Below are positions 2,328 to 18,224 of a stretch of DNA of 64,000 bases, in pieces. The first letter of the stretch is position 1; each line of letters begins with the position of its first letter. The stretch is from Paenibacillus sp. Soil522 (lineage in GTDB: Bacteria > Bacillota > Bacilli > Paenibacillales > Paenibacillaceae). The position numbers and the translations under genes are program-made. The DNA lies in assembly GCF_001428245.1 (NCBI RefSeq), contig NZ_LMRV01000040.1, positions 1 through 64,000 on the forward strand. The letters are read 5' to 3'. Below the pieces are notes generated by a model, which saw only the letters and a program-made list of their open reading frames with translations, was not told where the DNA came from and made no database searches.

Positions 2328-2484
2328 AATGGTTACTACTGTAGATCGCTGTTCGTTATTGTTGTCGTTAAGGATTGGCTGTTTGGTTTAATATTACAGA
2401 TAGATTTCCGATAGAAGAAGGCACATTTTCGTTAGCCTAGGAAATAAACTTAACGAGCATTGTACCTTATATGAAATCTGAATT

Positions 2485-3348: not shown

Positions 3349-3372
3349 TTATTTCATCCCATTTCCTCTAGT

Positions 3373-3453: not shown

Positions 3454-3483
3454 TTATTATCCTCGATTCTTTATGAGATATAC

Positions 3484-3498
3484 TAGGTCATTATAGCT
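3484..3498 (-). promoter_or_regulatory. Shared promoter-like motif, copy 1
   Basis: On the minus strand this reads AGCTATAATGACCTA, with a perfect TATAAT. TTGATA lies 16 bases upstream on that strand, giving a plausible sigma-A promoter for the HNH gene ending at 2485. Near-identical copies occur at 7315-7329 and 13614-13628, each ahead of minus-strand island genes. Confidence 0.5.
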
Positions 3499-3603
3499 AA
3501 AATGGAAAGATTATCAAAGAGTTTTGGAGGATACTGACAAAAGTAGTCGAAATCAAACATAAGCCAAAAGGTATAAACAGAATGATTAATGGAGGAACAG
3601 ATC

Positions 3604-4605: not shown

Positions 4606-4631
4606 ATTGTTAATTGAGGGTAGGCATATTA

Positions 4632-5714
4632 ATGGTTAAGCTAACAAACATAAAGAATGTCTTTAGGTTGTACAAAAGTGATAGTTCAACTTTCGAATCA
4701 ACGTTCTATGATCTCATAAGTGGTGACAATGAAACCAAACAAACCAAAGGGCTTGCGTATTTATTTTCTGTTTATCCTGGGTTGATTTCAAGACTGCTGC
4801 AAAACAAGTCAATTAGTACACTGCTTAAGAATAAAGTTAATGTAAATTTCAAATCTCTTGAATCATCAGATTTGGTAACAATTGATGCTGAAATGTTATC
4901 AAACGGCAAACCTATCATACGAAGAGATATTACAATAACATTCTATAAAGATAATAAGAAGCTACTTCTCCTTGTGATTGAGGCGAAGAGTATTAAGCAA
5001 AACGATGTCGGGGATATTACAAGTCAATTGTTAAGTTATTTTGATCCAACTTCTTTCCCAAGTGATGTTAACGTCCCTAAGATAGGTATAACGTTGTCAA
5101 AGTATCGTCATATTTTTGACAATGACAAGCATTACTTTGTAAGCCTAACTTGGATGGAAGTAATCGAAATACTTAATGATGTACTTGCTTTAATAAAGGA
5201 AGAGAGTATTCTACAAAAAAGACTTATTAGAGAATACCTGAAGTTTTTATTGGAGGTAGATGGTGGAATGAAGTTTTACGAAAAAGAAGTATTATCAGTT
5301 CCAGCAGCAGGTACAATACAACAGATTACTCAATATGACATTCATTCTTGTCCTAATTCTTATTCATACAAAACACCGTTGTACATTGCTTTTAGGGAAA
5401 AAGGCGGGTACATGGACACACTTTATCAAATTGAGGACATAGTTGTTATTAATCCGAATAATCCATCATATGAAGTTATTATTGATAAAAGTAATTTAGC
5501 TGGTAAAGAGAGAGTAAAGAGATATATAGAGGATCGAAGAGCAAACTTCGGATTCGAAAGGGACATTGAATACAGATTTTATGTATTATCCAAAAAGAAG
5601 AATATACGGTTGGTTCATAGACCAAGAATTAGCGGACTTTCAGGACATTGTTACTTTTCATTGTCAGAGTTATTGAATGGTCACGTAGATGTAGTTGTTG
5701 AATCTAAAGAATAG
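4632..5714 (+). CDS. PD-(D/E)XK nuclease-like protein
   Basis: The first third contains a pattern of the PD-(D/E)XK superfamily: an acidic residue in RRDITITF, a hydrophobic strand, then VIEAKS, where E and K would be catalytic. This resembles type I HsdR N-terminal and other restriction folds. The last 130 residues are basic-rich and unassigned. The start at 4632 uses the GAGGG at 4616-4620; a TTG 18 bases earlier is also open. It follows the McrA-like gene after 26 bases and ends at a strong terminator, so the two probably form a two-gene restriction-type unit. No methyltransferase is nearby, which fits modification-dependent rather than classical restriction. Confidence 0.65.
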   Translation: MVKLTNIKNVFRLYKSDSSTFESTFYDLISGDNETKQTKGLAYLFSVYPGLISRLLQNKSISTLLKNKVNVNFKSLESSDLVTIDAEMLSNGKPIIRRDITITFYKDNKKLLLLVIEAKSIKQNDVGDITSQLLSYFDPTSFPSDVNVPKIGITLSKYRHIFDNDKHYFVSLTWMEVIEILNDVLALIKEESILQKRLIREYLKFLLEVDGGMKFYEKEVLSVPAAGTIQQITQYDIHSCPNSYSYKTPLYIAFREKGGYMDTLYQIEDIVVINPNNPSYEVIIDKSNLAGKERVKRYIEDRRANFGFERDIEYRFYVLSKKKNIRLVHRPRISGLSGHCYFSLSELLNGHVDVVVESKE

Positions 5715-5730
5715 CTTCAATATAAAAATC

Positions 5731-5759
5731 AGCCATCCCTCATATTGAGTGGATGGCTT
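5731..5759 (+). terminator. Rho-independent terminator
   Basis: GCCATCC pairs with GGATGGC around an inner CTCA/TGAG arm, followed by a short T-rich tail. It closes the 3604-5714 unit. Confidence 0.65.
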
Positions 5760-5894
5760 CTTACTGCATTCAGTCGCTTGAACGGTGGTTACAATTGCCG
5801 TTTACGTTAAAGATCATGACAAAACGTCAGTCAAGGTTTTTAAGAGATTTATCGTTAATATAGGTTATTCAGACGCTTCCATAAAACTTATGTT

Positions 5895-7090
5895 TCATCG
5901 AAGGTGGTCAGAGGAAGCGGCAACATCCTCATTTGATGGCGAATATTCTTTAAGTGCATTGATAATATGGATGTATTCAGTCGGAGTGAACTCTTCGTTA
6001 TGTTCTAGGTATAAATCTTCACCGTTTGCATTTACGTAAGTTAGATAAGCTTCTTCATAGGGAACATTGTAGAGTCAGAGTGCTTAATGTCCCTAAATGA
6101 ATAAGAACTGAAACCAATTTTGTTACGAACTGACTTAGTATTTGAAAAGTAGAATTGTAGTCCATCATATGCATATACGATTGCAATTTTATCAGAATGT
6201 CCAAAAGTGATGACTGCAAGTAAATCAATAAATGACAGTAAGTCAACCTGAGAAAGAATTTCTTCAATACTTTCTCTATCTACATATTTATGTTTCACTA
6301 CATCTAATACTGAAGGTAACTTCTTTTCTTCAATCATAAAATCTTGAACATGAGCTTGATATACCTGAGTGTTTTTATAACATTCAATGTTCTCTGAGCC
6401 TATGTATTTTTCTACAAATTCTTCGGTGTATGGTTCAGTCAAGGTATCTCCTGTTCTTAAGTAAATTTCTTCGTCCATGAGCAATACTGGCATAGGGTCT
6501 ATCGTAAGTCTGAGGACTGCAATCGCTCCAATACATATTTCTGTAAGTTGTGTAAATTCATTATGGAATGTTGATTTGTCTTTGTGCTGGTTAATTGCAT
6601 GATTACGTGAAACATAGAAAGTATTGAATCCTAACTTGTGAACAATCTTGTTAAGGCGCTCTTTTGCACTTTGAAGATCTATGAAGTAACTAACCATTTG
6701 CTTTCTCATATCTGCAAAGACGTTCCCATTTGTGTTCAAGAATTTTATCATCTGGTTAAACATTGGGAATGTACTTTGAGACTTCCACTTCTTCAACTCT
6801 TCCTCACGTTTCTCTGATTCCAATTCCATTAGATAGACCATTGATGTTGATATTTCTATAGATTGTCTTAATGAGTAGTAGGCACAATCAAAGTAGCCCA
6901 TCTCATAAACAGATATTGCATTAACGATCAATTGGACAGATTCATGGATAAAAGTATTGGCGATTTGGGCATCGACTCGTCCTGTCCAACTACCTTCAAT
7001 GTTTGATAGGTCACGATAATATTGCTCTTTTCCTGATAATTGGTATGGAATGAGATTTTGCTTTTCTCTATGTTCGATAAATAAGTGCAT
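5895..7090 (-). CDS. Unknown helical protein, possible HEPN-like fold, apparent frameshift near C-terminus
   Basis: In the uninterrupted frame the gene ends at 6041 (about 349 residues from the ATG at 7090). The start was chosen because GGGAGTG lies five bases ahead; a GTG at 7108 contains that site and is rejected. The mid-region has a helical pattern (SLRQSIEISTSM) and later RLNKIVH, an R-x5-H motif that could mark a HEPN fold; this is inference. After the last residues SDSTMFPMKKLI the -1 frame continues as well-formed protein (YEEAYLTYVNANGEDLY and on to EDVAASSDHLR) down to a stop at 5895-5897. A single-base indel near 6065-6080 would join them, so the C-terminus is either shortened by mutation, a sequencing error, or made by frameshifting. 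Function unknown. Confidence 0.6.
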
Positions 7091-7109
7091 AAATTCACTC
7101 CCGCTCACT

Positions 7110-7160
7110 CTAACTTCTTCTACAGTTATCTTTGATGGTCATAACAATAAATGCGTCCAT
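7110..7160 (-). CDS. Possible 16-aa leader peptide upstream of unknown gene
   Basis: ATG-initiated short frame MDAFIVMTIKDNCRRS, starting within TAATG overlap with the stop of the 36-aa frame upstream and ending 19 bases before the ATG at 7090. The DNA closely resembles 13532-13576, where a 14-codon frame MTGFIAMHINVSHV stands in the same position ahead of another gene. Confidence 0.35.
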   Translation of the reverse strand: MDAFIVMTIKDNCRRS

Positions 7161-7270
7161 TAAAGCGCTTTTGGTTCGACGATGTTGAAGGCGAGTATAA
7201 ATCCGCAGTCAACTGCTAATTCAATTGCTAATTCCTCAAAGGTCTGTTGTATCTTACGTCGTCTTGCCAT
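7160..7270 (-). CDS. Small ORF (36 aa), basic N-terminus
   Basis: ATG with AGGAGA ribosome binding site at good spacing (complement of 7279-7284). The product begins MARRRKIQQTFEELAIELAV and ends AFNIVEPKAL. Its stop overlaps the ATG of the next short frame (TAATG), which suggests translational coupling towards the gene starting at 7090. Length and position suggest a leader or a small regulator. No family recognised. Confidence 0.45.
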   Translation of the reverse strand: MARRRKIQQTFEELAIELAVDCGFILAFNIVEPKAL

Positions 7271-7314
7271 TGTTGATAGTCTCCTAATCTGTTGAAATAT
7301 GGTAGTATGTTATA

Positions 7315-7329
7315 TAGGTCATTATAACT
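7315..7329 (-). promoter_or_regulatory. Shared promoter-like motif, copy 2
   Basis: Minus strand reads AGTTATAATGACCTA, with a perfect TATAAT, 45 bases upstream of the 36-aa ORF. It differs by one base from copy 1 (3484-3498). The plus-strand HNH gene starts 50 bases to the right, so this is a divergent control region. Confidence 0.5.
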
Positions 7330-7379
7330 GGAATGAAAGGTTTAGAAAACCAACACAACTGAAAGAAATGGAGTAATAT

Positions 7380-8354
7380 ATGAGTTTCGTTGAGAAATGG
7401 CTTCAGATCATCAGAAATTGTAGCTTTGACAATACATATAAAGCTTCATGGGCAAAGGCTATTACAGAGTTAGCAGTAGAGTTCAAAGATGATGGCTCTA
7501 CTGAACGAGTTGAGATTAGCTTGAAAAGTATCGCTGAGAAGGTACTTCGCTTTTACTTTGAACAAACGATATTCTTCAATCTTCAACAAAGTTCAAACCC
7601 TAATAAACCGCCTGTCATACTATCAATCGTACAGAATTTGATTAAGTATTATCAGCAAAAGACAGGTTCGCAGAAGCCAGTGAAATGGTACAAGTCTAAT
7701 ATCGAGAATATTTGTCCCTTGGAACTTAAAAAAGCTATAAGAGATACGGTTAGAGCATTGAAGACAGATGTAAGCTATCGCTTTATACGAATTGAAGGTA
7801 AAGATGTAGAGGGTATCTACGAATACGAACAAAAAGAAGATAGTTTGTTTATGAGTAAGGACAATCTAATTGCATTGAAGGAGAACTCGTTGATAGTATT
7901 CGATGCTATAAACTATCGTTGGGTTCAGATGCTAGAGCAGTTCAATCACTCGCCAAGGTTATCCAAGAAAGTTCGCATTATTGATGATGAACAAATAAGG
8001 CGTAAGCCGTTAGGTAAGTTTTCAACATACCTAGATTCCGAAAACCCTGACCATCTTTGCTTCTTATGTAGAGAGAAGATTGAGTATGAAACACCTGCTG
8101 TCGATCATGTCATTCCATGGTCGTATCTATATGCAGATGACATATGGAATTTGGTGTATGCTCATCAAACCTGTAATAGTAGCAAGTCAAATGTTATTCC
8201 AAGTGAAGAGCTTATCGCCAAGTTAGAAGCCAGAAATGTGCAATTGTTAGAACAACTACGTAGTAAAAGCATCAGGGACAAGCATTATGCAGAACTTGAA
8301 ATGGCTATCGATAATAACTTGGTTAGGAAGTTTTGGATTTCATGTCAGGGGTGA
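7380..8354 (+). CDS. HNH endonuclease, first gene of overlapping unit
   Basis: C-terminal HNH module: CFLC, then VDHVIPWS with the Asp-His pair, then a conserved asparagine in DDIWNLV and HQTCNSSKS. This DHxxP...N...CN arrangement is of the type found in Cas9/McrA-like and phage HNH proteins and differs from the two HNH genes at 2485 and 3604. The N-terminal 220 residues are unassigned and mostly helical. GGAG lies six bases ahead of the ATG. The 3' end overlaps the next gene by 13 bases, and a third gene overlaps in turn, so the three are probably translated together. Likely a DNA-targeting defence effector; target unknown. Confidence 0.8.
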   Translation: MSFVEKWLQIIRNCSFDNTYKASWAKAITELAVEFKDDGSTERVEISLKSIAEKVLRFYFEQTIFFNLQQSSNPNKPPVILSIVQNLIKYYQQKTGSQKPVKWYKSNIENICPLELKKAIRDTVRALKTDVSYRFIRIEGKDVEGIYEYEQKEDSLFMSKDNLIALKENSLIVFDAINYRWVQMLEQFNHSPRLSKKVRIIDDEQIRRKPLGKFSTYLDSENPDHLCFLCREKIEYETPAVDHVIPWSYLYADDIWNLVYAHQTCNSSKSNVIPSEELIAKLEARNVQLLEQLRSKSIRDKHYAELEMAIDNNLVRKFWISCQG

Positions 8355-8968
8355 GTTGTAAGTTGAATGTGAACAATGTCTATTTTGAGCAGCTTGATAA
8401 ACTGTTAAAGGATGATGTAAAGACCATCACTTGTTCTGAAATGAGTGACCTTTATTTTAGCTTTGGTAGAAATCTGAAAAATCTCACTGGTATCTCAGCA
8501 AATTACACTTGGTTGTCAGAGTTCTTAATTTTTAGATACGTGTACCACTATTTATGCTTCAATGAAGGAGCTATTCTTGATGAAAACTCTAGAGTTCAGT
8601 TTCAAAACAATAGGGATGGTTTGACTCTGATACCCAATAAAACTGTTACTGTAAATGGGAATACACAAGTACCAGATGTGGTTGTGATGAAGAATGATTC
8701 GATTCTTCGACTTATCTCAGTGAAGACGACAATGCTGAAAGTAGAAGAGGATTTTGAGCGGATAAGTAATATTAGGGCTGGAGTACATTCGAACTTCAGG
8801 TCAGTCACAGTTACATTTGACGAAATGAGGAATAGCACAAAGCTAAAGATGCAAGAAGTTGAGTTAGATTATGAATGGCATAAGTATATAAGCTTGAAGA
8901 ATGAGAAGCATACCTTTTATTCTGTTCTAACTGAGAAGCTTAAACTGAAAGAGGTGCTACTACAATGA
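8342..8968 (+). CDS. PD-(D/E)XK-like protein coupled to HNH gene
   Basis: Contains VPDVVVMKND followed by LRLISVKTT. This fits a restriction-like core with Asp on one strand and an S-x-K variant of the usual E-x-K on the next. N-terminal helices precede it. ATG at 8342 lies inside the end of the HNH gene; GTG 8351 and TTG 8363 are alternative starts, the latter with AGGGGTG ahead. The stop (TGA) overlaps the ATG of the next gene as ATGA. The variant active site makes nuclease activity uncertain; it may bind DNA without cutting. Confidence 0.6.
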   Translation: MSGVSCKLNVNNVYFEQLDKLLKDDVKTITCSEMSDLYFSFGRNLKNLTGISANYTWLSEFLIFRYVYHYLCFNEGAILDENSRVQFQNNRDGLTLIPNKTVTVNGNTQVPDVVVMKNDSILRLISVKTTMLKVEEDFERISNIRAGVHSNFRSVTVTFDEMRNSTKLKMQEVELDYEWHKYISLKNEKHTFYSVLTEKLKLKEVLLQ

Positions 8969-9282
8969 TTACATATAACAAGCTTGTGCGAGATAAGATA
9001 CCTCAGATTATTGAAGCTAATGGTAAGAAGTGCGAAGTGAAAGTTCTGTCACAAGACGAATACCTACAAATGCTTAAAGTAAAGCTACAGGAAGAACTTG
9101 ATGAATTCCAGAGTGCTGAAGAGAATAAGCAATTAGACGAATTAGCAGATTTAGTCGAAGTAGTATATGGGATTATTGCAAGTAAAGGCGTAGATATAGA
9201 AGCCTTTGAAAGAATACGACTTAAAAAGAAAGAAGAACGTGGTGGATTTGAGGACAAGCTTTTACTAATAAGTGTTGAATAG
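8965..9282 (+). CDS. MazG-like / PRA-PH-type nucleotide pyrophosphohydrolase
   Basis: A 105-residue all-alpha NTP pyrophosphatase-like protein. It starts with YNKLVRDKIPQII, the signature of this small phosphoribosyl-ATP pyrophosphohydrolase-like group. The metal-binding E-rich helix pair follows as EELDEFQ and DELADLVE. Family members hydrolyse nucleoside triphosphates to monophosphates, and some MazG-like proteins occur in defence islands, where they may alter nucleotide pools. It overlaps the upstream gene in an ATGA junction, so it belongs to the same unit. The small size and intact motifs suggest an active enzyme. Confidence 0.8.
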   Translation: MITYNKLVRDKIPQIIEANGKKCEVKVLSQDEYLQMLKVKLQEELDEFQSAEENKQLDELADLVEVVYGIIASKGVDIEAFERIRLKKKEERGGFEDKLLLISVE

Positions 9283-9420
9283 GACTAGCAATGTAAGTGA
9301 GATGCTAAAAAATTACTAAATCTAATAAAAGAATAGATTAAATAACCGATAGCGTGATTAATAGTTATATTGTAGTGTGAGTATTACTAATGTAAATGTA
9401 GTTGAATAGGAGTGAGTTTG

Positions 9421-10773
9421 ATGGATGTTTCTGAAATAATATCTTCCTCAATTTTTGATTACCAAGTAAATACTCCTATTACAATTTATGAAGGCGAAAT
9501 GTTACTTACATCTGAACATGAAAAATCCATTTTAATTAACGGGAAAATAGAACTTAATTGGTTACCAGTACCGCAGCTATATTTTGAGGGGTATGTTATT
9601 AAAGGCTTATCTGATTATTTTCATTTAAAATTTGTAAACTATAACTTAAGTACAAATAGTGGCTTCTCGTCAGGCATAATGATTACAAGTGTTACTCATG
9701 CTTCTGACACGAGTAATAAAATTGAAGGAATATGTAAAAATGAAATATCAAAAGGGTCGAATGAATTAACTAAATTAGAATTTGGAATTGTAAATTTCAT
9801 AAATATGCATGGAGATTTTATCAAAAAAGGAGCTTTAAATTACACAGGCAGAACAGAACTACTATATAAGGATTGGAAGATAACGATCATAAAACGCTAC
9901 GACTGTAAAAGCTATTATGAACAATTAAATAAAAAAGGTGGATACGGTGTTACGCATATCGGAGTATTAGAAAAATTGAATAAAAGTAGCTTTAATTATA
10001 GTGATGTAATAGATTTACTAGAAAATGTTAGCTGGGTATTATCATTTTGTGCAGGTAGATCAGTAGGTATTAGTGTGCTAAATGGATTTAATGGCGAACA
10101 TTTGGTACGGACTATTTATCAGCTTCCAATTATTACAGATTGGAAAAAGCAAACTACTTGGTTGGCTCATCCCGTAACGGATGTTGGAATTAATGACTTG
10201 TTTATTAATTTCAATCAGCTATTGAATAACCCATTATGGACAAAGACGATAAAAATAATTTTACTATGGTATTTTGATTGTTATGTAAGTACGTATACGG
10301 AAAATAAGATTGTTACAACTCAGATGGCTTTAGAAATGCTTGCTTGGACCTATTTAGTAGAAGATCAGGCAATCCTCACAAAACAGGAATTTAAGGCAAG
10401 AGATATGACTGCCTATAAGCGAATAAAAAAATTATTAGAAACTCAATCAATTAAATTTGATATTCCAGATGTACACTCTTTAACGACTTATAAGAATAAA
10501 TGTGATGATGGTATTCATCTGTTAACAAGGGTTAGGAATAGTATTGCTCATCCTGTTAAAGAGACTGATATAGCATCAATGAACTCAACCATTAAATACG
10601 GAGTTTTATGTATGGGGACACAATTCCTTGAATTATCTATACTACATATACTGAAATACAAAAGTGAAATTCATAATCGATTAAGTCCAAGTAAATGGTT
10701 AGGAGAAACTAATCAATTAGTACCTTGGGTTATCGTTGAGAATAAAGATGTGAAACCAGATTTAGATGAATAG
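9421..10773 (+). CDS. HEPN-domain protein, putative defence ribonuclease
   Basis: The C-terminal helical region contains VRNSIAHP, an R-x4-H motif (Arg372, His377 from this start), the catalytic signature of HEPN ribonucleases. The N-terminal 200 residues are strand-rich and may sense a trigger; the overall layout recalls defence proteins such as ApeA, but I cannot confirm that family. ATG 9421 was chosen because AGGAG (9408-9412) ends eight bases ahead; the GTG at 9412 overlaps the site. It starts 138 bases after the MazG-like gene on the same strand and could be transcribed with it or alone. HEPN defence proteins typically cut RNA and stop growth upon infection. Confidence 0.75.
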   Translation: MDVSEIISSSIFDYQVNTPITIYEGEMLLTSEHEKSILINGKIELNWLPVPQLYFEGYVIKGLSDYFHLKFVNYNLSTNSGFSSGIMITSVTHASDTSNKIEGICKNEISKGSNELTKLEFGIVNFINMHGDFIKKGALNYTGRTELLYKDWKITIIKRYDCKSYYEQLNKKGGYGVTHIGVLEKLNKSSFNYSDVIDLLENVSWVLSFCAGRSVGISVLNGFNGEHLVRTIYQLPIITDWKKQTTWLAHPVTDVGINDLFINFNQLLNNPLWTKTIKIILLWYFDCYVSTYTENKIVTTQMALEMLAWTYLVEDQAILTKQEFKARDMTAYKRIKKLLETQSIKFDIPDVHSLTTYKNKCDDGIHLLTRVRNSIAHPVKETDIASMNSTIKYGVLCMGTQFLELSILHILKYKSEIHNRLSPSKWLGETNQLVPWVIVENKDVKPDLDE

Positions 10774-11076
10774 AGAATGTTTGCTGCCTTCAACAAACCG
10801 CGGCGTGTTACATATGCCGTTGCTTTTTAAACTTAAAGTATCATCTCTGAAGTTAAAGCTTTTACTCACTCTTCCTATTTTATTAGTATATGAAGTAAGT
10901 GGATGTTAATAAATCAAATAAATAACCGTATTCCTGATATGTTTACTATGCTCTATTGATCTTTACTGAAAAATTTGCTGATGACGATCTCTTAACGTGA
11001 TTACAGAGTTAAACATTGCAATTGTATTGAGTTAATCATTCGAACAAATGAAGCTGTATTTATAGGGGGAAAGACA
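10774..11076. other. Intergenic stretch, weak hairpin near its start
   Basis: A CGGC/GCCG hairpin followed by a T run (about 10801-10828) may terminate the HEPN gene. The rest is AT-rich and shows no frame with a ribosome binding site until the gene at 11077. Confidence 0.35.
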
Positions 11077-11526
11077 ATGGATGCAAAGAGTGTGATTAAT
11101 GAAATAAATGAGCTTATAGAAAGTGGTCTTGGATTAGATCCAATAGAGACATTTCCAAATGGTCCGAAAAAGGGGAAAGAAGATTTTTACTATCAACATT
11201 ACATTTTAAATCATGCACCATGGAATTTGAAAAATCTGATGATGCGTATCAGATGTTATAACATTCCGACAGAAGCATGTACACAAACTAGGGTGGAATT
11301 TGGATTTAGTCAAAGAGATGCTAAATTGTCAGATCCACAAAAAAATGCATTGAGGAAAATGATGCGAGCGTATGCTGAACTTCATGGATATGAAGTAAAA
11401 GACAATGAAAACTTTAAGATACATCGTGAGATCAATAACAATAAATTCTTAGCAATCGAAGAAACAATTAAGCGATTAACTGGACTTTTTAAAGATATGG
11501 ACAAAATTCTTCAAACTTTATTGTAA
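11077..11526 (+). CDS. Hypothetical protein (149 aa)
   Basis: ATG with GGGGGAAAG ahead. The soluble product has a positively charged middle (RKMMRAYAELHGYEV) and a C-terminal amphipathic helix. I do not recognise a family. A strong terminator follows, so it is a single-gene unit between the HEPN gene and the MazF fusion gene. Confidence 0.6.
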   Translation: MDAKSVINEINELIESGLGLDPIETFPNGPKKGKEDFYYQHYILNHAPWNLKNLMMRIRCYNIPTEACTQTRVEFGFSQRDAKLSDPQKNALRKMMRAYAELHGYEVKDNENFKIHREINNNKFLAIEETIKRLTGLFKDMDKILQTLL

Positions 11527-11587
11527 GAGGGTAGCAAGTAAATCTAAGATTAGGTCTACGCGACCATGCAACTCTTATTTGTAGCTA

Positions 11588-11620
11588 AAATAACCGCATA
11601 GAACATGCGGTTATTCTTTT
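11588..11620 (+). terminator. Rho-independent terminator
   Basis: AATAACCGCAT pairs with ATGCGGTTATT across a short loop and is followed by CTTTT. A very clean hairpin just after the 11077 gene. Confidence 0.75.
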
Positions 11621-11677
11621 AGCCATAGGATCATTATTTTTACGTAGATAAAATCCGACTTTTATCTAATGCGTGAT

Positions 11678-11710
11678 CTGAGAGCGCTGAAGGTTGTTTA
11701 GTGCTCTCAG
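11678..11710 (+). repeat. Hairpin repeat, copy 1 (left of MazF fusion gene)
   Basis: An 11-bp near-perfect inverted repeat, CTGAGAGCGCT and AGTGCTCTCAG, around an 11-base loop. The same sequence with few changes recurs at 12809-12839 in the same orientation, with some similarity also in the preceding bases. The two copies bracket the MazF-AlbA_2 gene. No T-run follows this copy, so it is not a simple terminator. Confidence 0.7.
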
Positions 11711-11808
11711 ACCTCCAACCTAGGCTAAATTGATTAGTTAGAAGCATCATATTCCAGAAGTGAAATCTGTTGCTATGAGATATACCTACATAAATGACTT
11801 TGATATAT

Positions 11809-12675
11809 TTATTCAAGGTTTATCTTTTTTCTAATGAAGCTTACTATTTCTGTTCCAATCAGTTTTTTCTTTACACCGTCTAATCTTACATGTAATTCAT
11901 TACCATTCACAAAATAAATCGCTGATTTATCAGGTGAAATAGGAGTAATTACTTCAATAATATAAAGGTCATCTATTATTTTTCTATCTCTATCGTATAC
12001 AGGATGGTAGTTTATTTCAAAATGGTCTGGTGAGATTGCAGGATTTATTAAAAATAGTCTATCGTAGATAACTATTTTGATTTCATCCTTATCTTTGGAA
12101 GTTGCTACAACGCCTTTTACAACTTTCTCATTGGTAATTCCATAAAGCACTCTTCCTCCTCTTCCATTAAGAAACGAAGAAGCATACTCAGAAATAGTAT
12201 TTTTCACGCTGTTTTTAGGGTTACCTTTTATCTCCTTAAACTCATAACAATAGTCTTCCTCGAAACGAACTACCTCATTAATAGTATATGTAAAGTAATT
12301 TTCTACTTCTTTATGTACTTCACTGTTAATAGAAATAATTCCTCCAGCTATCATATACGCTTCATTTACTTCTTCAATCAACTTATCATCAAGATGTGCT
12401 ATCTTATCCATAAGTCTTGTTTTATCAATTGTTCTCAATTGATCTAGTTGAACGAATGAATCTTTTGGTAAGCCAGTTCTTTCAGCACGTAGTTCAACAT
12501 GGGTTGGAAGTTTGGCTTTTCGTGTTTTGGTTGTAATTGGTGCAATAATAACGGTAGGAGAGAAGCGATTTCCAATATCATTCTGTACAATTAGTACAGG
12601 TCTTACCCCTCCTTGTTCAGAACCGACTGTTGGAGAAAGATCAGCAAAAAATAGATCCATTCGTTTAATAATCAT
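11809..12675 (-). CDS. MazF/EndoA toxin domain fused to Schlafen AlbA_2-like domain
   Basis: Residues 1-115 match MazF/EndoA closely: DLSPTVGSEQGG, VRPVLIVQND, IAPITTK, QLRTIDK, KIAHLDD. Arg25 and Thr48, the catalytic pair of Bacillus EndoA, are both in place, so mRNA interferase activity at UACAU-type sites is plausible. Residues about 135-285 carry YEFKEIKG, then SEYASSFLNGRGGRVLYGI, the hallmark of the Schlafen AlbA_2 (divergent AAA_4) domain. The usual MazF is about 116 residues and is preceded by a MazE antitoxin gene; there is none here. AGAGGGGA precedes the ATG. The second domain may act as a built-in inhibitor, a sensor or a targeting module; this is inference. Confidence 0.85.
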   Translation of the reverse strand: MIIKRMDLFFADLSPTVGSEQGGVRPVLIVQNDIGNRFSPTVIIAPITTKTRKAKLPTHVELRAERTGLPKDSFVQLDQLRTIDKTRLMDKIAHLDDKLIEEVNEAYMIAGGIISINSEVHKEVENYFTYTINEVVRFEEDYCYEFKEIKGNPKNSVKNTISEYASSFLNGRGGRVLYGITNEKVVKGVVATSKDKDEIKIVIYDRLFLINPAISPDHFEINYHPVYDRDRKIIDDLYIIEVITPISPDKSAIYFVNGNELHVRLDGVKKKLIGTEIVSFIRKKINLE

Positions 12676-12808
12676 ATAAAATCCCCTCTATTATTACTTG
12701 AAAAAATTGTTTATTTAAGACATTAAGGATAGTTCGGCATTAATTGAAGATTTCCTCTTTATGGATAGGAATGTTTTCACAAATTCAAGTATTTATGTAA
12801 GGTATGCT

Positions 12809-12846
12809 CTGAGAGCGCTGGAGGTTGTTCAGCGCTCTCTTTTATA
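12809..12846 (+). repeat. Hairpin repeat, copy 2 (right of MazF fusion gene), terminator-like
   Basis: GAGAGCGCTG pairs with CAGCGCTCTC around a nine-base loop and is followed by TTTTAT, so in plus orientation it would act as a terminator. It is a direct repeat of 11678-11710 with about four differences. No plus-strand gene ends just before it, since the MazF fusion gene runs the other way. Confidence 0.7.
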
Positions 12847-12952
12847 TTACAAGGGAATTAGTATTCAAGAAGATGCTCTCCGTTCAGAATATAATTCTGT
12901 TGGTTATAAAGCAAGGAGGGAGGGTGATTGAAATTCATATACAGGACTTTTT

Positions 12953-13489
12953 CTATGTACTTTTGATAAACCAATGTGATTTATCTTCATTGGGTTTACA
13001 AAAACCACCAGTCATTTCAATAACACGACCAGCCGCTAGTAACTTTTGATTGTTATTAAGCCATGAAAAGTTTTCTGGATAGTCATACTCAACTTCTTGA
13101 ATAAAGCCTAAGAAAAATTTACAAATAGTATCATTCTTTATATAGTCTACAACTTTGGATACGTCAGCATAAAACAGTTTATCATTTGTAGAGTCCAAAT
13201 ATTTGAATTCAAAAATGGCGATAGGAACTTCTAGTTCTTCCTGCTTCACTAAAATCGCCATATCGACATACTTACCTTGATAATAATATTCTGGGTAGAT
13301 AAACATTTTAAAATAATCTAGTGTGGAGTCTCCAAGTTCTCTTCTCATATGGTAATAAAAACAGTCCTGAAGAGAAGCTTCTCTGTACAAACGACCAAGA
13401 ATATAATCATTAGATATATTATTTAGCCAAACGGTTTTTGCAGTTTTCTCTACTAATTTTGATAACTTATTGAGGATCTCCATCTTCAT
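12953..13489 (-). CDS. PD-(D/E)XK-like protein (178 aa)
   Basis: Shows a restriction-like fold pattern: an early glutamate in YREASLQD, then YVDMAILVK with the metal-binding aspartate, then IAIFEFKYL with the E-x-K pair. At 178 residues it is a compact single-domain protein. AGAGGA stands nine bases ahead of ATG 13489. It is preceded by a short leader frame and the shared promoter motif (13614-13628). It is likely a nuclease, though some family members are inactive and serve as DNA-binding parts. Confidence 0.65.
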   Translation of the reverse strand: MKMEILNKLSKLVEKTAKTVWLNNISNDYILGRLYREASLQDCFYYHMRRELGDSTLDYFKMFIYPEYYYQGKYVDMAILVKQEELEVPIAIFEFKYLDSTNDKLFYADVSKVVDYIKNDTICKFFLGFIQEVEYDYPENFSWLNNNQKLLAAGRVIEMTGGFCKPNEDKSHWFIKST

Positions 13490-13531
13490 ACTTTATATCC
13501 TCTATTCTTTAAGTACTTGTTACTTTGTTTC

Positions 13532-13576
13532 TTATACATGACTAACGTTGATGTGCATAGCAATAAATCCTGTCAT
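13532..13576 (-). CDS. Possible 14-aa leader peptide
   Basis: Short frame MTGFIAMHINVSHV ending 42 bases before the PD-(D/E)XK-like gene. DNA around its start resembles the leader at 7110-7160 ahead of an unrelated gene, including a TAATG start context. No homology beyond that is available, so it is tentative. Confidence 0.3.
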   Translation of the reverse strand: MTGFIAMHINVSHV

Positions 13577-13613
13577 TAAATCGTTTTATCTTTGATGTAG
13601 CGTTTAGTAAGTA

Positions 13614-13628
13614 TAGGTCACTATAACT
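13614..13628 (-). promoter_or_regulatory. Shared promoter-like motif, copy 3
   Basis: Minus strand reads AGTTATAGTGACCTA, differing from copy 2 by one base, 38 bases upstream of the short leader frame. The -10-like hexamer is TATAGT here. It sits just beyond the stop of the DUF2971-like gene on the same strand. Confidence 0.45.
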
Positions 13629-13652
13629 AACTGACAGCTACCTATTTCTTCT

Positions 13653-14303
13653 CTAAATGGCAACTACAGCAAGTGTAGTGATTCCACGTATTTCCTCCAA
13701 TACGTTTTTTGGGCAATTATCAATGAAATATTTGTAGCAGTCGGGGTTGTAAAGAATGACATGAACATGACTATATTCAAACGACAAATGATTAGGCAAC
13801 CGCCATTCCCTTTCGTGAGTCCAATCGGTTAAATTGTTGTCATTAGATAAGCTAAAATCTACAATGCGCCAATGTTCATTTGGAGAAAGGTATTTTCTTG
13901 CAGTGGTACTGTCATCATAAATGACTGGTCTGCCATTTTTTTTATAAATGAACTGTTTCATAAAAGCCAAGCCTACTCCACAATATCTTAATTTTTCGGT
14001 TGGATTATTTTTTCTTCTTTCTTCTTCATGACGAATGTTTTGTATAAGTCCTGTTAGTGGAGCGTCTTGAAAGCAAACAGCAGGAGTTGAACCAGTAATA
14101 TAACCTGTACTGGTAGTGCTACCATTAAGTTTCTTGTCCTGCAAGATTTTTAGCAAAGTATCAACTGCTTTAATATTAATTTGCGAAAAGGTTTGGTTTG
14201 TTAAGTCTTCGCTATGATTGGGTTTTGTTAAATGTGTACACATTCTAGACAAGTCGCTTCTTGAATTGAACCTTTCTCTCCATTGTTTTATTGTATATGC
14301 CAT
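13653..14303 (-). CDS. DUF2971-like protein (216 aa)
   Basis: A CFQDAPLTGL segment, GRPVIYDD, and the motif WTHEREWRLPN near the C-terminus resemble the DUF2971 group, which is frequent in accessory and defence regions and has no settled biochemical role. ATG 14303 was chosen because AAGGAG lies at good spacing; an upstream frame to 14363 is open but lacks a binding site. It is divergent from the recombinase gene at 14537. Family assignment is by motif memory and moderate. Confidence 0.55.
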   Translation of the reverse strand: MAYTIKQWRERFNSRSDLSRMCTHLTKPNHSEDLTNQTFSQINIKAVDTLLKILQDKKLNGSTTSTGYITGSTPAVCFQDAPLTGLIQNIRHEEERRKNNPTEKLRYCGVGLAFMKQFIYKKNGRPVIYDDSTTARKYLSPNEHWRIVDFSLSNDNNLTDWTHEREWRLPNHLSFEYSHVHVILYNPDCYKYFIDNCPKNVLEEIRGITTLAVVAI

Positions 14304-14536
14304 TTTACACATCTCCTTATGAATAATTAGTCCTATTAAGTTCGACTTACCAATATCTAACACCTTCTTGATAACGAATGTTTTTGAGAAGAATCGTACC
14401 GATCACTAATTCTTCCGTATAATTGCCTAAAAGTAGTATCAAAAGCCATCTCATTATCAAAGAAACATTAGACTGGACAAAGACCCTTTTTGAGAGTACA
14501 GTCTGGTCTGTTCTTATGAAATAGGAGGGATTTTTT

Positions 14537-15109
14537 ATGGCTCGAATCGGCTATGGAAGAGTAAGTACACTTGACCAATCTTTAGATTTACAAACAGACG
14601 CTTTGATACAAGCAGGATGTATAAAGATTTTTGAGGAAAAAGTATCGGGTAAAAATGATGATCGAATAGAATTGGCAAAAGCTATTGAATATCTTCGGGA
14701 AGGCGATGCTTTAGTGGTATACAAGCTGGATCGTCTTGCAAGATCAACCAAGAAGCTTATTGAAATAAGCGAGCTGCTGGATCAAAGAGGTATTGAGCTG
14801 ATTAGCATACGTGATAACATTGACACAACAAACGCCGTAGGACGTGCTATGTTTAAAATGATCGCTGTCATTGCGGAATTGGAACGCGATATAATTAGCG
14901 AGCGTACAATGGCAGGATTAGCCGCAGCTAGAGCGAGAGGGCGTAAAGGTGGAAGACCTAAAACTGACGAGAAGAAAGTTAATCAAGCCATCAAACTATA
15001 CGACAGCAAGCAATACAGCTTGAACGAGATAACCGAACTAACAGGTGTATCCAAACCCACTTTATACAGAGAGCTATCAAAAAGAACGGAATCGAAGAAG
15101 TCTTCTTAA
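14537..15109 (+). CDS. Serine recombinase, resolvase/invertase family
   Basis: Classic N-terminal catalytic domain: GYGRVST with the nucleophilic serine at residue 10, then ALVVYKLDRLARS, then the IAELERDIISERT helix. The C-terminal part ends in a helix-turn-helix (SLNEITELTGVSKPTLYREL). At 190 residues it is of resolvase/invertase size, not a large serine integrase. AGGAGG precedes the ATG. Imperfect inverted sequence AGACTGGAC/GTCTGGTCT lies upstream (about 14470-14512) and could be part of its site. It may be from a Tn3-like element, but no transposase or ends are seen. Confidence 0.9.
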   Translation: MARIGYGRVSTLDQSLDLQTDALIQAGCIKIFEEKVSGKNDDRIELAKAIEYLREGDALVVYKLDRLARSTKKLIEISELLDQRGIELISIRDNIDTTNAVGRAMFKMIAVIAELERDIISERTMAGLAAARARGRKGGRPKTDEKKVNQAIKLYDSKQYSLNEITELTGVSKPTLYRELSKRTESKKSS

Positions 15110-15127
15110 AGAAGGCTTTTTTGTTTT
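15096..15127 (+). terminator. Rho-independent terminator after recombinase gene
   Basis: AAGTCTTCTT pairs with AAGAAGGCTT, followed by a run of T. The stem overlaps the end of the coding sequence. Confidence 0.7.
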
Positions 15128-15231
15128 ATGTATAAGGGGTGGGGGATCAATATTACTTTTTTAAGCTTTTCTCAATACTCAGACCCCATAGGCACTCCGT
15201 CTCAGCGACCTTATATATTGGAGGAACATAA

Positions 15232-15510
15232 ATGGACGAATATTTTCATTTTATTGTAGAGAATCTTGATGTTCAGGACATTCAATTTTTGAGAATGTTA
15301 TCAAATGATGGGGCGAATGCAAAGTATAAAGCATTGCTAAGTGCTAAAGCATTTGAGAAAAGTGGCTTATCCGAAGCAAAATATAGGAATGTGATTATAC
15401 GTCTTGGAGCTGTACGCTTTATAGAGGTTAATACCACATCTAAGGAACATTCTTTATTCATTAATGGCTATGGTAAGAAGGCATTGGCGATAATTTTTGA
15501 TAAACAATGA
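15232..15510 (+). CDS. Hypothetical protein (92 aa), possible winged-helix fold
   Basis: GGAGG at ideal spacing ahead of the ATG. The helix pattern and the segment SEAKYRNVIIRLGAVRFIEV followed by a short beta turn resemble a winged-helix DNA-binding domain; this is a weak inference. A terminator follows, making it a single-gene unit. Confidence 0.55.
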   Translation: MDEYFHFIVENLDVQDIQFLRMLSNDGANAKYKALLSAKAFEKSGLSEAKYRNVIIRLGAVRFIEVNTTSKEHSLFINGYGKKALAIIFDKQ

Positions 15511-15558
15511 TTAAACTCACATATTTGAAGTTTTAACATTCATCAATATATCAGTATT

Positions 15559-15588
15559 GGAAGCCTTTCATGTGAAGGCTTCTTTTTT
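15559..15588 (+). terminator. Rho-independent terminator
   Basis: GAAGCCTT pairs with AAGGCTTC around a seven-base loop, then six T. It closes the 15232 gene. Confidence 0.75.
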
Positions 15589-15785
15589 AGGGAGCGAATG
15601 AAAAGGATAAAAATACTTTTTTGTTTTAATAAATGACCAGAACCCTAGTGACAGGAAATTCGTATAGGTTTTTTCATGGAAAATGAAGGGAAATGAGAAA
15701 GGGTGTCGAAAAAACCAAGATAAAGATATATGAACCGAAAAGTTTTATATCGGTTCAATATAATAAACAAGATGGAGTGGGTAAA

Positions 15786-16013
15786 ATGACAAAAAATGAA
15801 TTAGGAGAAATTCTGAAGCAAATGTATGATAAAGCACCTCAAGGTTATCAGGTAGCAAATATTCATTATTTTGGAGTGAAGTATGCTGAAGTTATAAATC
15901 GATATAATTATAATGTGAAAGATATTATTGGTTTATCAGGTCTAAATCCTTCATATGCCACAGAAGTAAGTAAAGGAATAAAGCTATCTAAATACGTAAT
16001 GCCGAGGTCGTAG
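15786..16013 (+). CDS. Small HTH-like protein (75 aa)
   Basis: GGAG and GTGGG precede the ATG at 15786; a longer frame from 15693 lacks a binding site. The product contains VKDIIGLSGLNPSYATEVSKGIKL, reading like a helix-turn-helix, after an N-terminal helix and a YQVANIHYFG strand. Similar small proteins are seen in mobile regions of Bacilli. Its role is unknown, probably regulatory. Confidence 0.6.
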   Translation: MTKNELGEILKQMYDKAPQGYQVANIHYFGVKYAEVINRYNYNVKDIIGLSGLNPSYATEVSKGIKLSKYVMPRS

Positions 16014-16045
16014 ATATAGCGAAAGCTTAAGAAATGGTGATAAGA

Positions 16046-16135
16046 ATGATGATTTATGAGTATTATAGTTTGTTAATAGGTGAGTGGGTGTGGTTGCTGG
16101 TGGAATTACAGCAGAACTTAAGTATGTTTAATTGA
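16046..16135 (+). CDS. Possible 29-aa small ORF
   Basis: Two consecutive ATGs begin a frame MMIYEYYSLLIGEWVW that ends after 29 residues. A weak GGTGAT precedes it. The start resembles small holin-like or type I toxin peptides only superficially. Listed as a candidate. Confidence 0.2.
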   Translation: MMIYEYYSLLIGEWVWLLVELQQNLSMFN

Positions 16136-16165
16136 GGGGAATAGCTGCATTTCTAATGAGGAATC

Positions 16166-16200
16166 AAAAAACGTTAAGAGGGGTTCTCTTAACGTTTTTC
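16166..16200. terminator. Bidirectional terminator
   Basis: AAAACGTTAAGAG pairs with CTCTTAACGTTTT around a short loop, with A and T runs on both sides. It serves the converging Xre gene, overlapping its last codons, and any plus-strand transcript. Confidence 0.8.
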
Positions 16201-16434
16201 ATTCTGCAAATGCTCAAATTCAATTTCAACTAGACGTACAAGTTCAGAAGGTTTCATATTCAAGCCTTTAGATATATCAAATAAACTAGTCAGTGTGGGT
16301 TGATATTTACCGTTTTCAAGCATTGAAATGTAACTGCGTTCAAGCTTACTATCAAATGATAATTGTTCTTGTGTAATGTCTTTCTTAATTCTAAGGCTTT
16401 TAACGACTTTTCCAAAAACAGATTCAAGTTGCAA
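16189..16434 (-). CDS. Xre-family transcriptional regulator
   Basis: An 81-residue helix-turn-helix protein: FGKVVKSLRIKKDITQEQL, recognition helix region ERSYISMLENGKYQPTL, then GLNMKPSELV. It is very like controller proteins of restriction-modification loci and phage repressors. The start is TTG with GGAGT seven bases ahead. It stands alone, divergent from the SHOCT-protein gene at 16603, so it may repress that gene and itself. Confidence 0.9.
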   Translation of the reverse strand: MQLESVFGKVVKSLRIKKDITQEQLSFDSKLERSYISMLENGKYQPTLTSLFDISKGLNMKPSELVRLVEIEFEHLQNEKR

Positions 16435-16602
16435 GGAAGGACTCCTTTTAGAATCATTATCTGAGAAATCGTCCGATTACCTTGTCTAGTATACTACTCA
16501 AAATGGTACACAATTACAATTTAGTGTGATAGAATTTTATAGTTACTATTTAGTTGCTTTAAATGGAAGCTACATTCAAAAAACAAAAAGTGGGTGTTCT
16601 TT

Positions 16603-17610
16603 ATGAAGTCAGTCATGAAATTCATAAAAGAAGTAGAGGGTAAACTCCAGATTTATTGCGATGAATGTGGAATGGTAAAGGAAGTTCCAAGTACCCAATG
16701 TGCTAAAAGTCAGTTCTCACCTTACATAAACTGTATTTGTGGCAACGAAGGTAAGTTGTTGAGTGGAAGGCAAAAGAAAAAAGAGAGTATTCTTAATGCA
16801 ATAATAACCTTAGTAATAGGAGTAGGTATAACTATATGGTTATTTACATTGTCAAGTTTAATAGGTTGGATTTCTTTGGTATTTTTCTTACTCATTACTT
16901 TAGGTTTTCTTGCTGGACAAGATGATACAGAAGCACATAAAAAAGGGAAGATACTAGATACTTTTAATTCTCATAAATCTAAACTAGTGAACTCAAATGC
17001 ATACTATATCTCTTGTGATATGAAATCTGCATTGTGCATTGACAGTGTGGAAAACAAAATATGTGTAATGTCTTCGGAACTTAACATAGGAAAGGTTTAT
17101 TCATCAAATGATATACTTGAAGTGGAAATTGTTGAGGATGGGAAATCAGTTATTAATACTTCTAGAGGGAGTCAAGTTGGTGGTGCATTAATTGGGGCTG
17201 TTTTAGCTGGCGGTGTAGGAGCAATCGTTGGTGGATTGTCTGGTAAGAAAATACAATCTGATACAGTTAATCGAATTGATATGAAATTGTTGTTAAATGA
17301 TATTGAGAACCCAGTGATTATGATTAACTTTATGAATGACTTCAATTTCGCCACTAAAACCAAAAATAAAGAGGGAGAGAGAAAGGATAGTAGAAAATAC
17401 AAAGAAGCTATTGAACTAGTAACACATTGGCATGGATTGGTAAGTGTATTAATAAAACGAGCAGATGATGGAGACAACGCTTCAAACCAAAAAAACTACA
17501 TTACAAATTTCTCTATAGCTGATGAATTAACAAAACTAGTTGAACTACATAAAAATGGTATCCTTACTCAGGAAGAATTTGAACTGCAAAAGAATAAAGT
17601 GCTTTCGTAA
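16603..17610 (+). CDS. Zinc-ribbon/TM/glycine-zipper protein with C-terminal SHOCT domain
   Basis: N-terminal Cys pairs (CDEC, CICG) suggest a zinc ribbon. Two adjacent hydrophobic stretches (residues about 65-105) form a membrane hairpin. A glycine-zipper segment (GGALIGAVLAGGVGAIVGG) lies in the middle. The last 30 residues, DELTKLVELHKNGILTQEEF, are a SHOCT domain. This assembly is frequent in phage and mobile regions and is likely membrane-bound, with the SHOCT part as an oligomerisation tag. ATG 16603 follows GTGGGTG. A strong terminator follows. Confidence 0.7.
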   Translation: MKSVMKFIKEVEGKLQIYCDECGMVKEVPSTQCAKSQFSPYINCICGNEGKLLSGRQKKKESILNAIITLVIGVGITIWLFTLSSLIGWISLVFFLLITLGFLAGQDDTEAHKKGKILDTFNSHKSKLVNSNAYYISCDMKSALCIDSVENKICVMSSELNIGKVYSSNDILEVEIVEDGKSVINTSRGSQVGGALIGAVLAGGVGAIVGGLSGKKIQSDTVNRIDMKLLLNDIENPVIMINFMNDFNFATKTKNKEGERKDSRKYKEAIELVTHWHGLVSVLIKRADDGDNASNQKNYITNFSIADELTKLVELHKNGILTQEEFELQKNKVLS

Positions 17611-17626
17611 TAAATGAATAAAAAGT

Positions 17627-17660
17627 AAAACAGCCTTTGGGTACTTCACAAAGGCTGTTT
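17627..17660 (+). terminator. Rho-independent terminator
   Basis: AAACAGCCTTTG pairs with CAAAGGCTGTTT. It lies 20 bases after the SHOCT-protein gene. Confidence 0.75.
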
Positions 17661-17722
17661 CTATTAGCAGTGTCTCCGCATTAATGTAATAAAACATTTC
17701 CTTTTTAGCTATAAATTTCTGT

Positions 17723-17866
17723 CTAAAAATGTTTCTCTAACCATCGTTGTATCCAATGATAACGCCAGTGATGGTCTTCGGAATATATGGTAAGTATTTT
17801 GTGACATGAACCAAATGCCTTATGCGCTAGTTGTTCTCCATCGTCTAACGTGGCTTCAAATTTCAT
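17723..17866 (-). CDS. Small hypothetical protein (47 aa)
   Basis: ATG with AAGG upstream. It begins MKFEATLDDGEQLAHKAFG and ends with an aromatic- and His-rich tail (HHWRYHWIQRWLEKHF). Protein-like composition and position at the island edge make it plausible, but I know no family. Confidence 0.45.
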   Translation of the reverse strand: MKFEATLDDGEQLAHKAFGSCHKILTIYSEDHHWRYHWIQRWLEKHF

Positions 17867-18018
17867 GAAGTACCTTATCCTTCAATATAATTAACTGGCT
17901 TTTAAAGTGTATTTATTGTACAGTTTTTTTAGATAAGCGTGTAGTTACTACAGTTTGAAGTATTTACCCTACGTATATATTTTAGTTTTCCCCGAGAAGC
18001 CTTATTTTATATGGATAA

Positions 18019-18159
18019 CTGCCAATCGTTCAACTTTCATTATATAATTCAATTGCTGCAGGAACGACTCACAAAGTAAACATCGAACTCATTCTTCAGC
18101 TCATCCGCGAGTGCGGCAAAATTCCTGCCCAGCGGGATACGAAATATAATATCCGATAA
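18019..18159 (+). pseudogene. mqnC: 3' fragment of mqnC (futalosine menaquinone pathway)
   Basis: The frame encodes AAGTTHKVNIELILQL then RECGKIPAQRDTKYNIR and stops. It resembles the C-terminus of MqnC, the radical-SAM cyclic dehypoxanthinyl futalosine synthase. Upstream there is an in-frame stop at 18016 and only AT-rich island sequence, so just about 35 codons remain. A large terminator at 18225-18280 fits the normal end of that chromosomal gene. This is probably the junction between island and core genome. Assignment is from motif memory. Confidence 0.6.
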
Positions 18160-18224
18160 AGCTGATCTTGATTTTATTATGCAAAACTAGCTTGTTTTGG
18201 TCATATATAGTAATGGATTATATG

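What the first reader, a model, noticed from the sequence alone, without database searches (positions are those of the whole stretch)
11809..12675. MazF toxin domain fused to a Schlafen AlbA_2-like domain, with no MazE
Residues 1-115 are a near-complete EndoA-type MazF with catalytic Arg25 and Thr48 in place; the remainder carries the EFKE...SFLNGRGGRVLYGI signature. No antitoxin gene is adjacent. An active RNase with a fused AlbA_2 module suggests self-restraint or a trigger sensor, as in some defence proteins. The fusion is seen directly; its regulation is inference.
Basis: partly seen in the sequence, partly recalled or inferred. Interest (0 to 1): 0.66.

Follow-up and report, generated by a model that had tools for sequence, protein, structure and literature searches.

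The report
Mobile MazF toxin with Schlafen/SAMD9-like tail
A bacterial mobile element carries one gene that joins an mRNA-cutting toxin to a domain resembling the RNA-cutting part of animal antiviral Schlafen and SAMD9 proteins, with no antitoxin gene beside it; a related fusion sits in a phage-like contig, so this looks like an inherited, probably antiviral, design rather than an accident.

Summary
ORF 11809-12675 (-) encodes 288 aa: residues 1-114 are an EndoA-type MazF (R25, T48 kept), about 126-288 an AlbA_2 domain whose best solved matches are SAMD9's tRNase domain and Schlafens. No MazE gene was seen beside it; an ordinary chromosomal mazEF lies on another contig. New facts: (1) it is not a singleton. 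A phage-like contig carries a colinear fusion (40% identity over 293 columns, linker included), also with no MazE seen, about 1.4 kb before the terminase genes. (2) Codon patterns suggest constraint on both halves, and trees of each half pair the two fusions (moderate support, long branches), so one old fusion event is likely. (3) The gene is cargo of a low-GC island integrated at the 3' end of an mqnE-like gene; a tyrosine integrase lies at the other end. (4) In 9 of 10 other complete copies the tail module follows ABC/SMC-type ATPases or TPRs. (5) Schlafen-type acidic residues: E140 and E145 kept, the third is N182; the other fusion has D. Most likely a MazE-less RNA-cutting defence protein whose tail senses or targets RNA and perhaps cleaves tRNA. 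That the tail restrains MazF is untested. Architecture not found in the open papers searched.

The parts
11809..12675 (-). MazF-AlbA_2 fusion gene, 288 aa (stop included)
12334..12675 (-). EndoA-type MazF domain, residues 1-114; R25 codon 12601-12603, T48 codon 12532-12534
   Evidence: PF02452 E 7.8e-33; 4me7 E 1.6e-44; VIA-align Z 16.9 to 7bxy; 25 of 29 positions at least 95% conserved in 49 MazF rows are kept
12301..12333 (-). linker, residues 115-125, low confidence in the model but partly shared with the second fusion
   Evidence: pLDDT under 50 at 112-127; E119, V120, E123, E125 identical in L069
11812..12300 (-). AlbA_2 (Schlafen/SAMD9-type) module, residues 126-288; E140 codon 12256-12258, E145 12241-12243, N182 12130-12132
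   Evidence: PF04326 E 3.5e-13; SAMD9 7ksp_B Z 15.7, 157 aligned, and 9o0d_A Z 15.6, 158 aligned; E140 and E145 in 11 of 11 module relatives, D in 10 of 11 at the N182 column
12683..12689 (-). ribosome-binding site AGAGGGG
   Evidence: read
11661..11708 (+). 48-nt palindromic repeat, copy 1 (core 11680-11708)
   Evidence: role unknown
12792..12839 (+). 48-nt palindromic repeat, copy 2 (core 12811-12839, terminator-like on +)
   Evidence: role unknown
18055..18200 (+). duplicated 3' end of the mqnE-like gene before ytxC (18055-18071 and 18123-18200 match C88): att-like end of the island
1..18054 (.). low-GC integrative island carrying the fusion gene (continues beyond the contig start, probably into C88:1-12780)
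   Evidence: GC 0.343 for 1-17600 against 0.479 for 18100-64000; tyrosine integrase beside the mqnE-like gene on C88; that the two contig ends belong together is inference

Best explanation
A cargo gene of mobile elements that encodes a MazE-less, translation-targeting defence (abortive) protein. Shown: a MazF domain with its catalytic residues, joined by a short linker to a SAMD9/Schlafen-type AlbA_2 module; the same architecture, again with no MazE seen, in a second mobile setting; codon patterns of constraint in both halves. Inferred: MazF cuts mRNA; the tail binds tRNA or other structured RNA and thereby aims or restrains MazF, releasing it when infection disturbs cellular RNA. The tail may add its own tRNA cleavage: more likely where the third carboxylate is D (phage-like member), weaker or lost here (N182).
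For: Domains and folds. Second colinear fusion, 40% identity over 293 columns, E 2e-67, including the linker, with both Pfam domains, in a contig with terminase and portal genes. Codon-position identities between the two fusions: MazF .53/.71/.40, tail .53/.60/.40 (no significance test made); fusion MazF against the host's chromosomal mazF .69/.83/.32. Each half pairs the two fusions: MazF tree 87/75, module tree 87/87. Island setting: integrase, RES, three HNH, PRA-PH (MazG-like, recalled) and invertase genes. ATPase parts of the three module relatives tested match PADLOC models such as AriA, PtuA and GajA. E140 and E145 in 11 of 11 module relatives. SLFN13 E205A and E210A inactive, mutation of any of the three acids diminishes activity (PMC5862951, passages); SAMD9L's AlbA_2 site is needed for translation arrest and restriction (PMC11221667, passages).
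Against: No activity, toxicity or phage data. Only two fusions are known. N182 replaces the third acid. E78, the same in 49 of 49 MazF rows, is D here; the second fusion lacks the GSEQGG loop of MazF. No inter-domain contact could be read from the models. The fusion hit no PADLOC model. The MazF tree's program warns that the fusion pair joins two long branches; in the module tree the second fusion is a long branch, and 42 of 500 shuffled labels cluster as well.
Confidence: 0.4

Rival explanations
1. An orphan MazF neutralised in trans by the host's chromosomal MazE; the tail is an accessory RNA-binding part.
For: RHH-type gene in the mazE place directly before mazF at C77; the fusion's MazF is 65% identical to that MazF.
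Against: The gene is mobile and its MazF lies outside the order's chromosomal MazF group on a long branch; no MazE was seen beside the second fusion either (by reading ORFs).
Confidence: 0.2
2. The tail is mainly a second effector: a two-RNase protein (mRNA by MazF, tRNA by AlbA_2), controlled by expression or by an unknown partner.
For: SAMD9 structures, one titled tRNase domain, are the best-scoring folds for the tail; E-E kept here, E-E-D complete by sequence in the second fusion; in 9 of 10 other complete copies the module is C-terminal to ATPases or TPRs, an effector-like position.
Against: N182 here; no tRNA data.
Confidence: 0.2
3. The tail only aims or dimerises MazF (RNA-binding targeting module) and MazF acts as a mild post-transcriptional regulator or element-maintenance gene.
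For: N182 suggests binding over cleavage; SLFN5 is described as binding tRNA without cleavage (PMC11221667, passages).
Against: Defence-like neighbours on both elements fit immunity as well or better.
Confidence: 0.12
4. RNA-neutralised toxin: the two hairpins bracketing the gene act as an RNA antitoxin, as in type III systems.
For: Two near-identical hairpins, the only two found in 51 genus genomes (own included) with up to 3 mismatches, flank the gene; all 12 core pairs hold on + in both copies.
Against: Not tandem; copy 2 reads as a terminator, though one such site is no more than shuffles give (mean 1.4); three changes that keep pairs is weak; the second fusion's 10.9-kb locus has no similar repeat (best 12 of 29 mismatches).
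Confidence: 0.03
5. A decaying or misassembled chimera.
For: A near-unique architecture in a draft assembly; reads not available.
Against: A second colinear fusion and codon patterns of constraint.
Confidence: 0.02

Closest known systems
EndoA/MazF of type II MazEF (B. subtilis; 4mdx, 4me7)
   Same: whole fold, R25 and T48; 55-64% identity to these chains in Foldseek alignments of 114-115 columns
   Different: no adjacent MazE seen; 174 extra residues, mostly an AlbA_2 module
SAMD9/SAMD9L AlbA_2 tRNase domain
   Same: best-scoring solved folds for the tail (Z 15.6-15.7, 157-158 aligned; a second look at Foldseek's matches, Z within 1 counts as tied)
   Different: SAMD9 has SIR2-like, STAND NTPase, TPR and OB parts (PMC5445408, passages); the E-E spacing here is 5 as in Schlafens against 12 in SAMD9L (E186/E198), and the third acid is N
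Schlafen SLFN13/11 core
   Same: E-x4-E-F-K motif aligned to E205/E210
   Different: only one lobe's worth of sequence; the D248 position is N182
Bacterial Schlafens in BREX and phage defence
   Same: Schlafen-type RNases in defence settings (PMC12839542, passages)
   Different: those passages describe fusion to a minimal histidine kinase and wHTH, and the paper's text has no 'MazF'; the preprint it cites, 10.1101/2025.07.24.666596, is not held and was not read
Fused toxin-antitoxin genes and multidomain RelE/ParE toxins
   Same: toxin joined to another domain in one chain (PMC11980606, abstract and sections 20-21)
   Different: other toxin fold; no known antitoxin domain was found in the tail here

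Membership tests
type II MazEF module | MazF-fold toxin with conserved R25/T48 | tested here: met
   R25 also
type II MazEF module | cognate MazE gene adjacent | tested here: not met
   ORFs of 20 aa or more read, neighbours profiled; the chromosomal mazE is on contig C77; the rest of the genome was not searched for MazE
type II MazEF module | sequence-specific mRNA cleavage neutralised by MazE | not testable with these tools
   needs the bench
Schlafen/SAMD9 AlbA_2 RNases | AlbA_2 fold | tested here: met
Schlafen/SAMD9 AlbA_2 RNases | three acidic active-site residues (E-E-D) | tested here: not met
   E140 and E145 kept, third is N182; complete in the second fusion L069 by sequence
Schlafen/SAMD9 AlbA_2 RNases | tRNA cleavage | not testable with these tools
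   needs the bench
single-chain fused toxin-antitoxin | antitoxin domain in cis that blocks the toxin | tested here: inconclusive
   no known antitoxin domain in the tail; models do not place the domains
type III (RNA) toxin-antitoxin | tandem RNA repeats beside the toxin gene | tested here: not met
   two separate hairpins 1131 nt apart, no tandem array beside the gene; no Rfam match there at E up to 0.1
inherited MazF-AlbA_2 fusion family | same domain order and colinear linker in independent loci | tested here: met
   window and L069/L112, two loci

The most novel reading that the evidence does not exclude
A self-contained two-RNase immune protein: MazF (mRNA) and a SAMD9/Schlafen-type module (tRNA) on one chain, with the module replacing MazE as the on-board switch that senses tRNA or other structured RNA and frees MazF during infection. 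It would be an antitoxin-free way to keep MazF in check, carried by islands and phages.
Probability: 0.22. Interest if true: 0.82.

Novelty: new variant of a known kind. Interest (0 to 1): 0.58.

Why it matters
MazF toxins are normally understood through MazE. A mobile MazF that travels without MazE but with a Schlafen/SAMD9-type domain asks directly whether an RNA-binding or RNA-cutting domain can take the antitoxin's place, and links a bacterial toxin to a domain used by animals against viruses. The two natural fusions, one with and one without the full acidic triad, give a ready-made pair for testing.

Tried and rejected
Singleton idea: scans with the fusion or its tail gave no other fusion. 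Full length: 99 genomes including the own one (98 with a match, apart from the own one only to the MazF half). Tail: 398 genomes including own, 2 with a match, own and a weak regulator-type AlbA_2 protein; 51 including own, 2 with a match, own and a weak one; 2 of 250, 2 of 250 and 1 of 369 at E 1e-15 around L009, L006 and L007, none with MazF. Genome contigs: 27 stretches, 6 tail-only loci. Viral contigs: 0 and 1. Plasmids 0 of 115 and phages 0 of 97 matching records cover 80%. It was dropped when the tails of MazF loci were read: 1 of 11 viral MazF loci (L069) is a second fusion.

PF02452 over 398 genomes: 348 with a match; only the strongest rows are listed, with frames up to 237 aa, so weaker long ones may be missed. 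Coprococcus phage hit H107: MazF and the next gene are separate. Two further viral scans gave only the same contig as fusion. Hairpins: no exact match in viral contigs, no match in phages. No direct repeats of 34 nt or more around six module relatives. Recent fusion of the host's own mazF: rejected, the fusion's MazF falls outside the order's group (support 87/92) and its GC3 is 0.18 against 0.48. Second structure model (A7) was worse, pLDDT 72.8 against 78.0. Literature: 'mazf'+'schlafen' 0 papers; three or more of six terms gave two SAMD9L papers, neither holding 'mazf'. The library holds open-licence PMC papers, no bioRxiv collection.

Rows dropped: L003 from the MazF counts and tree (distant); identical MazF rows from the tree (50 to 37); L007's two out-of-frame pieces from the module tree (kept, apart, in the counts); weak, more distant AlbA_2 proteins (L040, L043, L061, L062) from all module counts. 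In one search I tried several row sets to find one that MAFFT aligned properly; A3 uses 4 of 7 MazF rows (L066 and L069 cut to their MazF part), A7 two of them plus the whole second fusion; both use six of ten module rows. A2 and A6 were misaligned and not used.

Full report
Observation. The window holds a 288-aa ORF at 12675..11809 on the minus strand. Pfam finds PF02452 (MazF/PemK) at residues 4-106, E 7.8e-33, and PF04326 (SLFN_AlbA_2) at 140-271, E 3.5e-13. PDB phmmer gives B. subtilis EndoA over 1-114, E 1.6e-44, and Schlafen-8 over 136-207. A model (pLDDT 78.0, pTM 0.55, residues 112-127 under 50) matches MazF structures (7bxy Z 16.9, rmsd 2.8, 113 aligned) with its first half and SAMD9 (7ksp_B Z 15.7, rmsd 2.7, 157 aligned; 9o0d_A, titled rSAMD9 tRNase domain, Z 15.6, rmsd 2.7, 158 aligned) and Schlafens (7cux Z 14.5, rmsd 4.6, 140 aligned; 5yd0 Z 13.9, rmsd 2.2, 122 aligned) with its second (a second look at Foldseek's matches).

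Residues. Against 49 MazF rows (L003 dropped), 29 positions are at least 95% conserved; the fusion keeps 25 and differs at 76, 78, 110 and 113; R25 is kept and T48 aligns with EndoA's. In the tail, E140 and E145 align with Schlafen E205 and E210 (residues named in PMC5862951, passages) and are present in 11 of 11 module relatives; the third acid is D in 10 of 11, N in L005 and N182 here. In SLFN13 the first two Glu mutants were inactive and mutating any of the three diminished activity. So the tail may bind rather than cut, or cut weakly.

No MazE seen. No ORF of 20 aa or more beside the gene reads as MazE, and the flanking proteins tested match no antitoxin above cut-off. The genome keeps an ordinary chromosomal pair on contig C77, an RHH-type gene then mazF. 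I did not search the whole genome for further MazE genes.

A second fusion. Reading the tails of MazF loci from a viral-contig scan showed that 1 of 11, L069, continues into an AlbA_2 domain. Its 311-aa protein has both Pfam domains (E 8.2e-24 and 9.8e-14) and aligns with the window protein nearly end to end: 40% identity over 293 columns, E 2e-67, linker residues E119, V120, E123, E125, Y127 and N133 shared, R25 and T48 shared, and a complete E-E-D by sequence; it lacks the GSEQGG loop. Its locus runs regulator-like gene, DUF2513, fusion, small gene, UPF0489, terminase small, terminase large, SPP1-type portal, with a Beta_protein gene upstream; no MazE-like gene was seen among its ORFs. Whether that phage is temperate or intact was not tested. 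In the phage and plasmid collections no record matches it over 80% (0 of 65 and 0 of 60 matching records).

Selection and origin. Between the two fusions, identity by codon position is .53/.71/.40 in the MazF half and .53/.60/.40 in the tail; against the host's chromosomal mazF the MazF half gives .69/.83/.32. This is the pattern of protein-level constraint, without a formal test. The MazF tree joins the two fusions (87/75) outside the order's chromosomal MazFs, and the module tree joins the two tails (87/87; 42 of 500 shuffled labels cluster as well). Long branches are involved, as the program warns. One fusion event is the simplest reading.

The module elsewhere. Ten other complete modules of this sub-family were seen. 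Six are C-terminal to AAA/ABC/SMC-type ATPases (L006, L008, L009, L063, L064, L065), three to TPRs (L004, L005, L059), one to a region without Pfam match (L041, a Pantoea plasmid); an eleventh, L007, is split by a frame break. The ATPase parts of L006, L008 and L009 match PADLOC models of AriA, PtuA, GajA, HEC-02A and others at modest scores; L004, L005 and L041 match none. So the module is a portable part of proteins some of which resemble defence proteins. The fusion itself hits no PADLOC model.

Setting. GC is 0.343 over 1-17600 and 0.479 beyond 18100; the gene is 0.324. In nine loci of relatives in which the script's listing showed it, the ORF next to the start of ytxC is one and the same kind of protein, ending in a shared MQN motif; the two of these nine tested are radical SAM proteins with a CofH/MqnC C-terminal region (mqnE-like; name recalled). 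Other relatives show other neighbours or were not readable in that listing. In this genome the mqnE-like gene lies on contig C88, and a fragment of its 3' end sits at window 18055-18200 before ytxC; each copy lacks a piece the other has (51 and 20 nt). Next to it on C88 come a tyrosine integrase, an MrpR-like protein, a DEAD-type helicase and a DUF3991/Toprim protein, at GC 0.31-0.36 over 6001-12000. The island is therefore most likely an integrative element, at least about 30 kb if the two contig ends belong together (inference). Cargo in the window includes RES, three HNH, a PRA-PH (MazG-like, recalled) and a DNA-invertase gene. The host genus is not named by the tools; Paenibacillus or a relative is my guess.

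Mechanism. Shown: architecture, conserved residues, recurrence, codon patterns, mobile setting. Inferred: MazF cuts mRNA; the tail binds tRNA or other structured RNA, and either restrains MazF until infection or adds tRNA cleavage. SAMD9L gives the precedent that an AlbA_2 active site drives translation arrest against viruses (PMC11221667, passages). I commit to a MazE-less abortive RNA-cutting protein at 0.4, with cis-restraint by the tail as the bold version.

Novelty. In the open library searched, no paper holds both 'mazf' and 'schlafen', and of the papers holding three of six related terms none holds 'mazf'. A preprint on bacterial Schlafens in phage defence is cited in PMC12839542 (reference seen) but was not held, so it may mention such fusions. 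I rate it a new variant of a known kind.

Noticed in passing
window 11661-11708 and 12792-12839 (+): Two 48-nt palindromic repeats (40 of 48 identical) bracket the fusion gene; the core was found only here in 51 genus genomes (up to 3 mismatches); all 12 core pairs hold on the + strand in both copies. Origin and role unknown.
   Followed up: partly
window 18055-18200; L111 10313-12895: Island integrated at the 3' end of an mqnE-like gene with an att-like duplication, a tyrosine integrase and an MrpR-like protein.
   Followed up: yes
L006, L008, L009, L063, L064, L065: Single-chain ABC/SMC-type ATPase + AlbA_2 proteins; the three tested in PADLOC match AriA/PtuA/GajA-type models among others, so possibly one-protein systems in the style of PARIS (name recalled).
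   Followed up: partly
L004, L005, L059: TPR proteins ending in the same AlbA_2 module, in Poribacteria and Chloroflexi.
   Followed up: no
L066 1501-2600: A viral MazF fused to P22_AR_N and ANT antirepressor domains.
   Followed up: no
window 9412-10773 (+): 453-aa protein without Pfam match at E 0.1 that contains RNSIAHP, like the Rx4-6H motif of HEPN RNases (motif recalled).
   Followed up: no
L112 1998-5936: Beta_protein (PF14350) and a 190-aa gene lie upstream of the second fusion, before the terminase genes: a possible phage cargo spot.
   Followed up: partly
window 19379-19652 (+): T-box leader candidate ahead of thrS, 73.3 bits, below the gathering score of 93.
   Followed up: no
L003 1405-1986: A further MazF-domain protein of 193 aa in the own genome, contig C33, with extra residues on both sides.
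   Followed up: no
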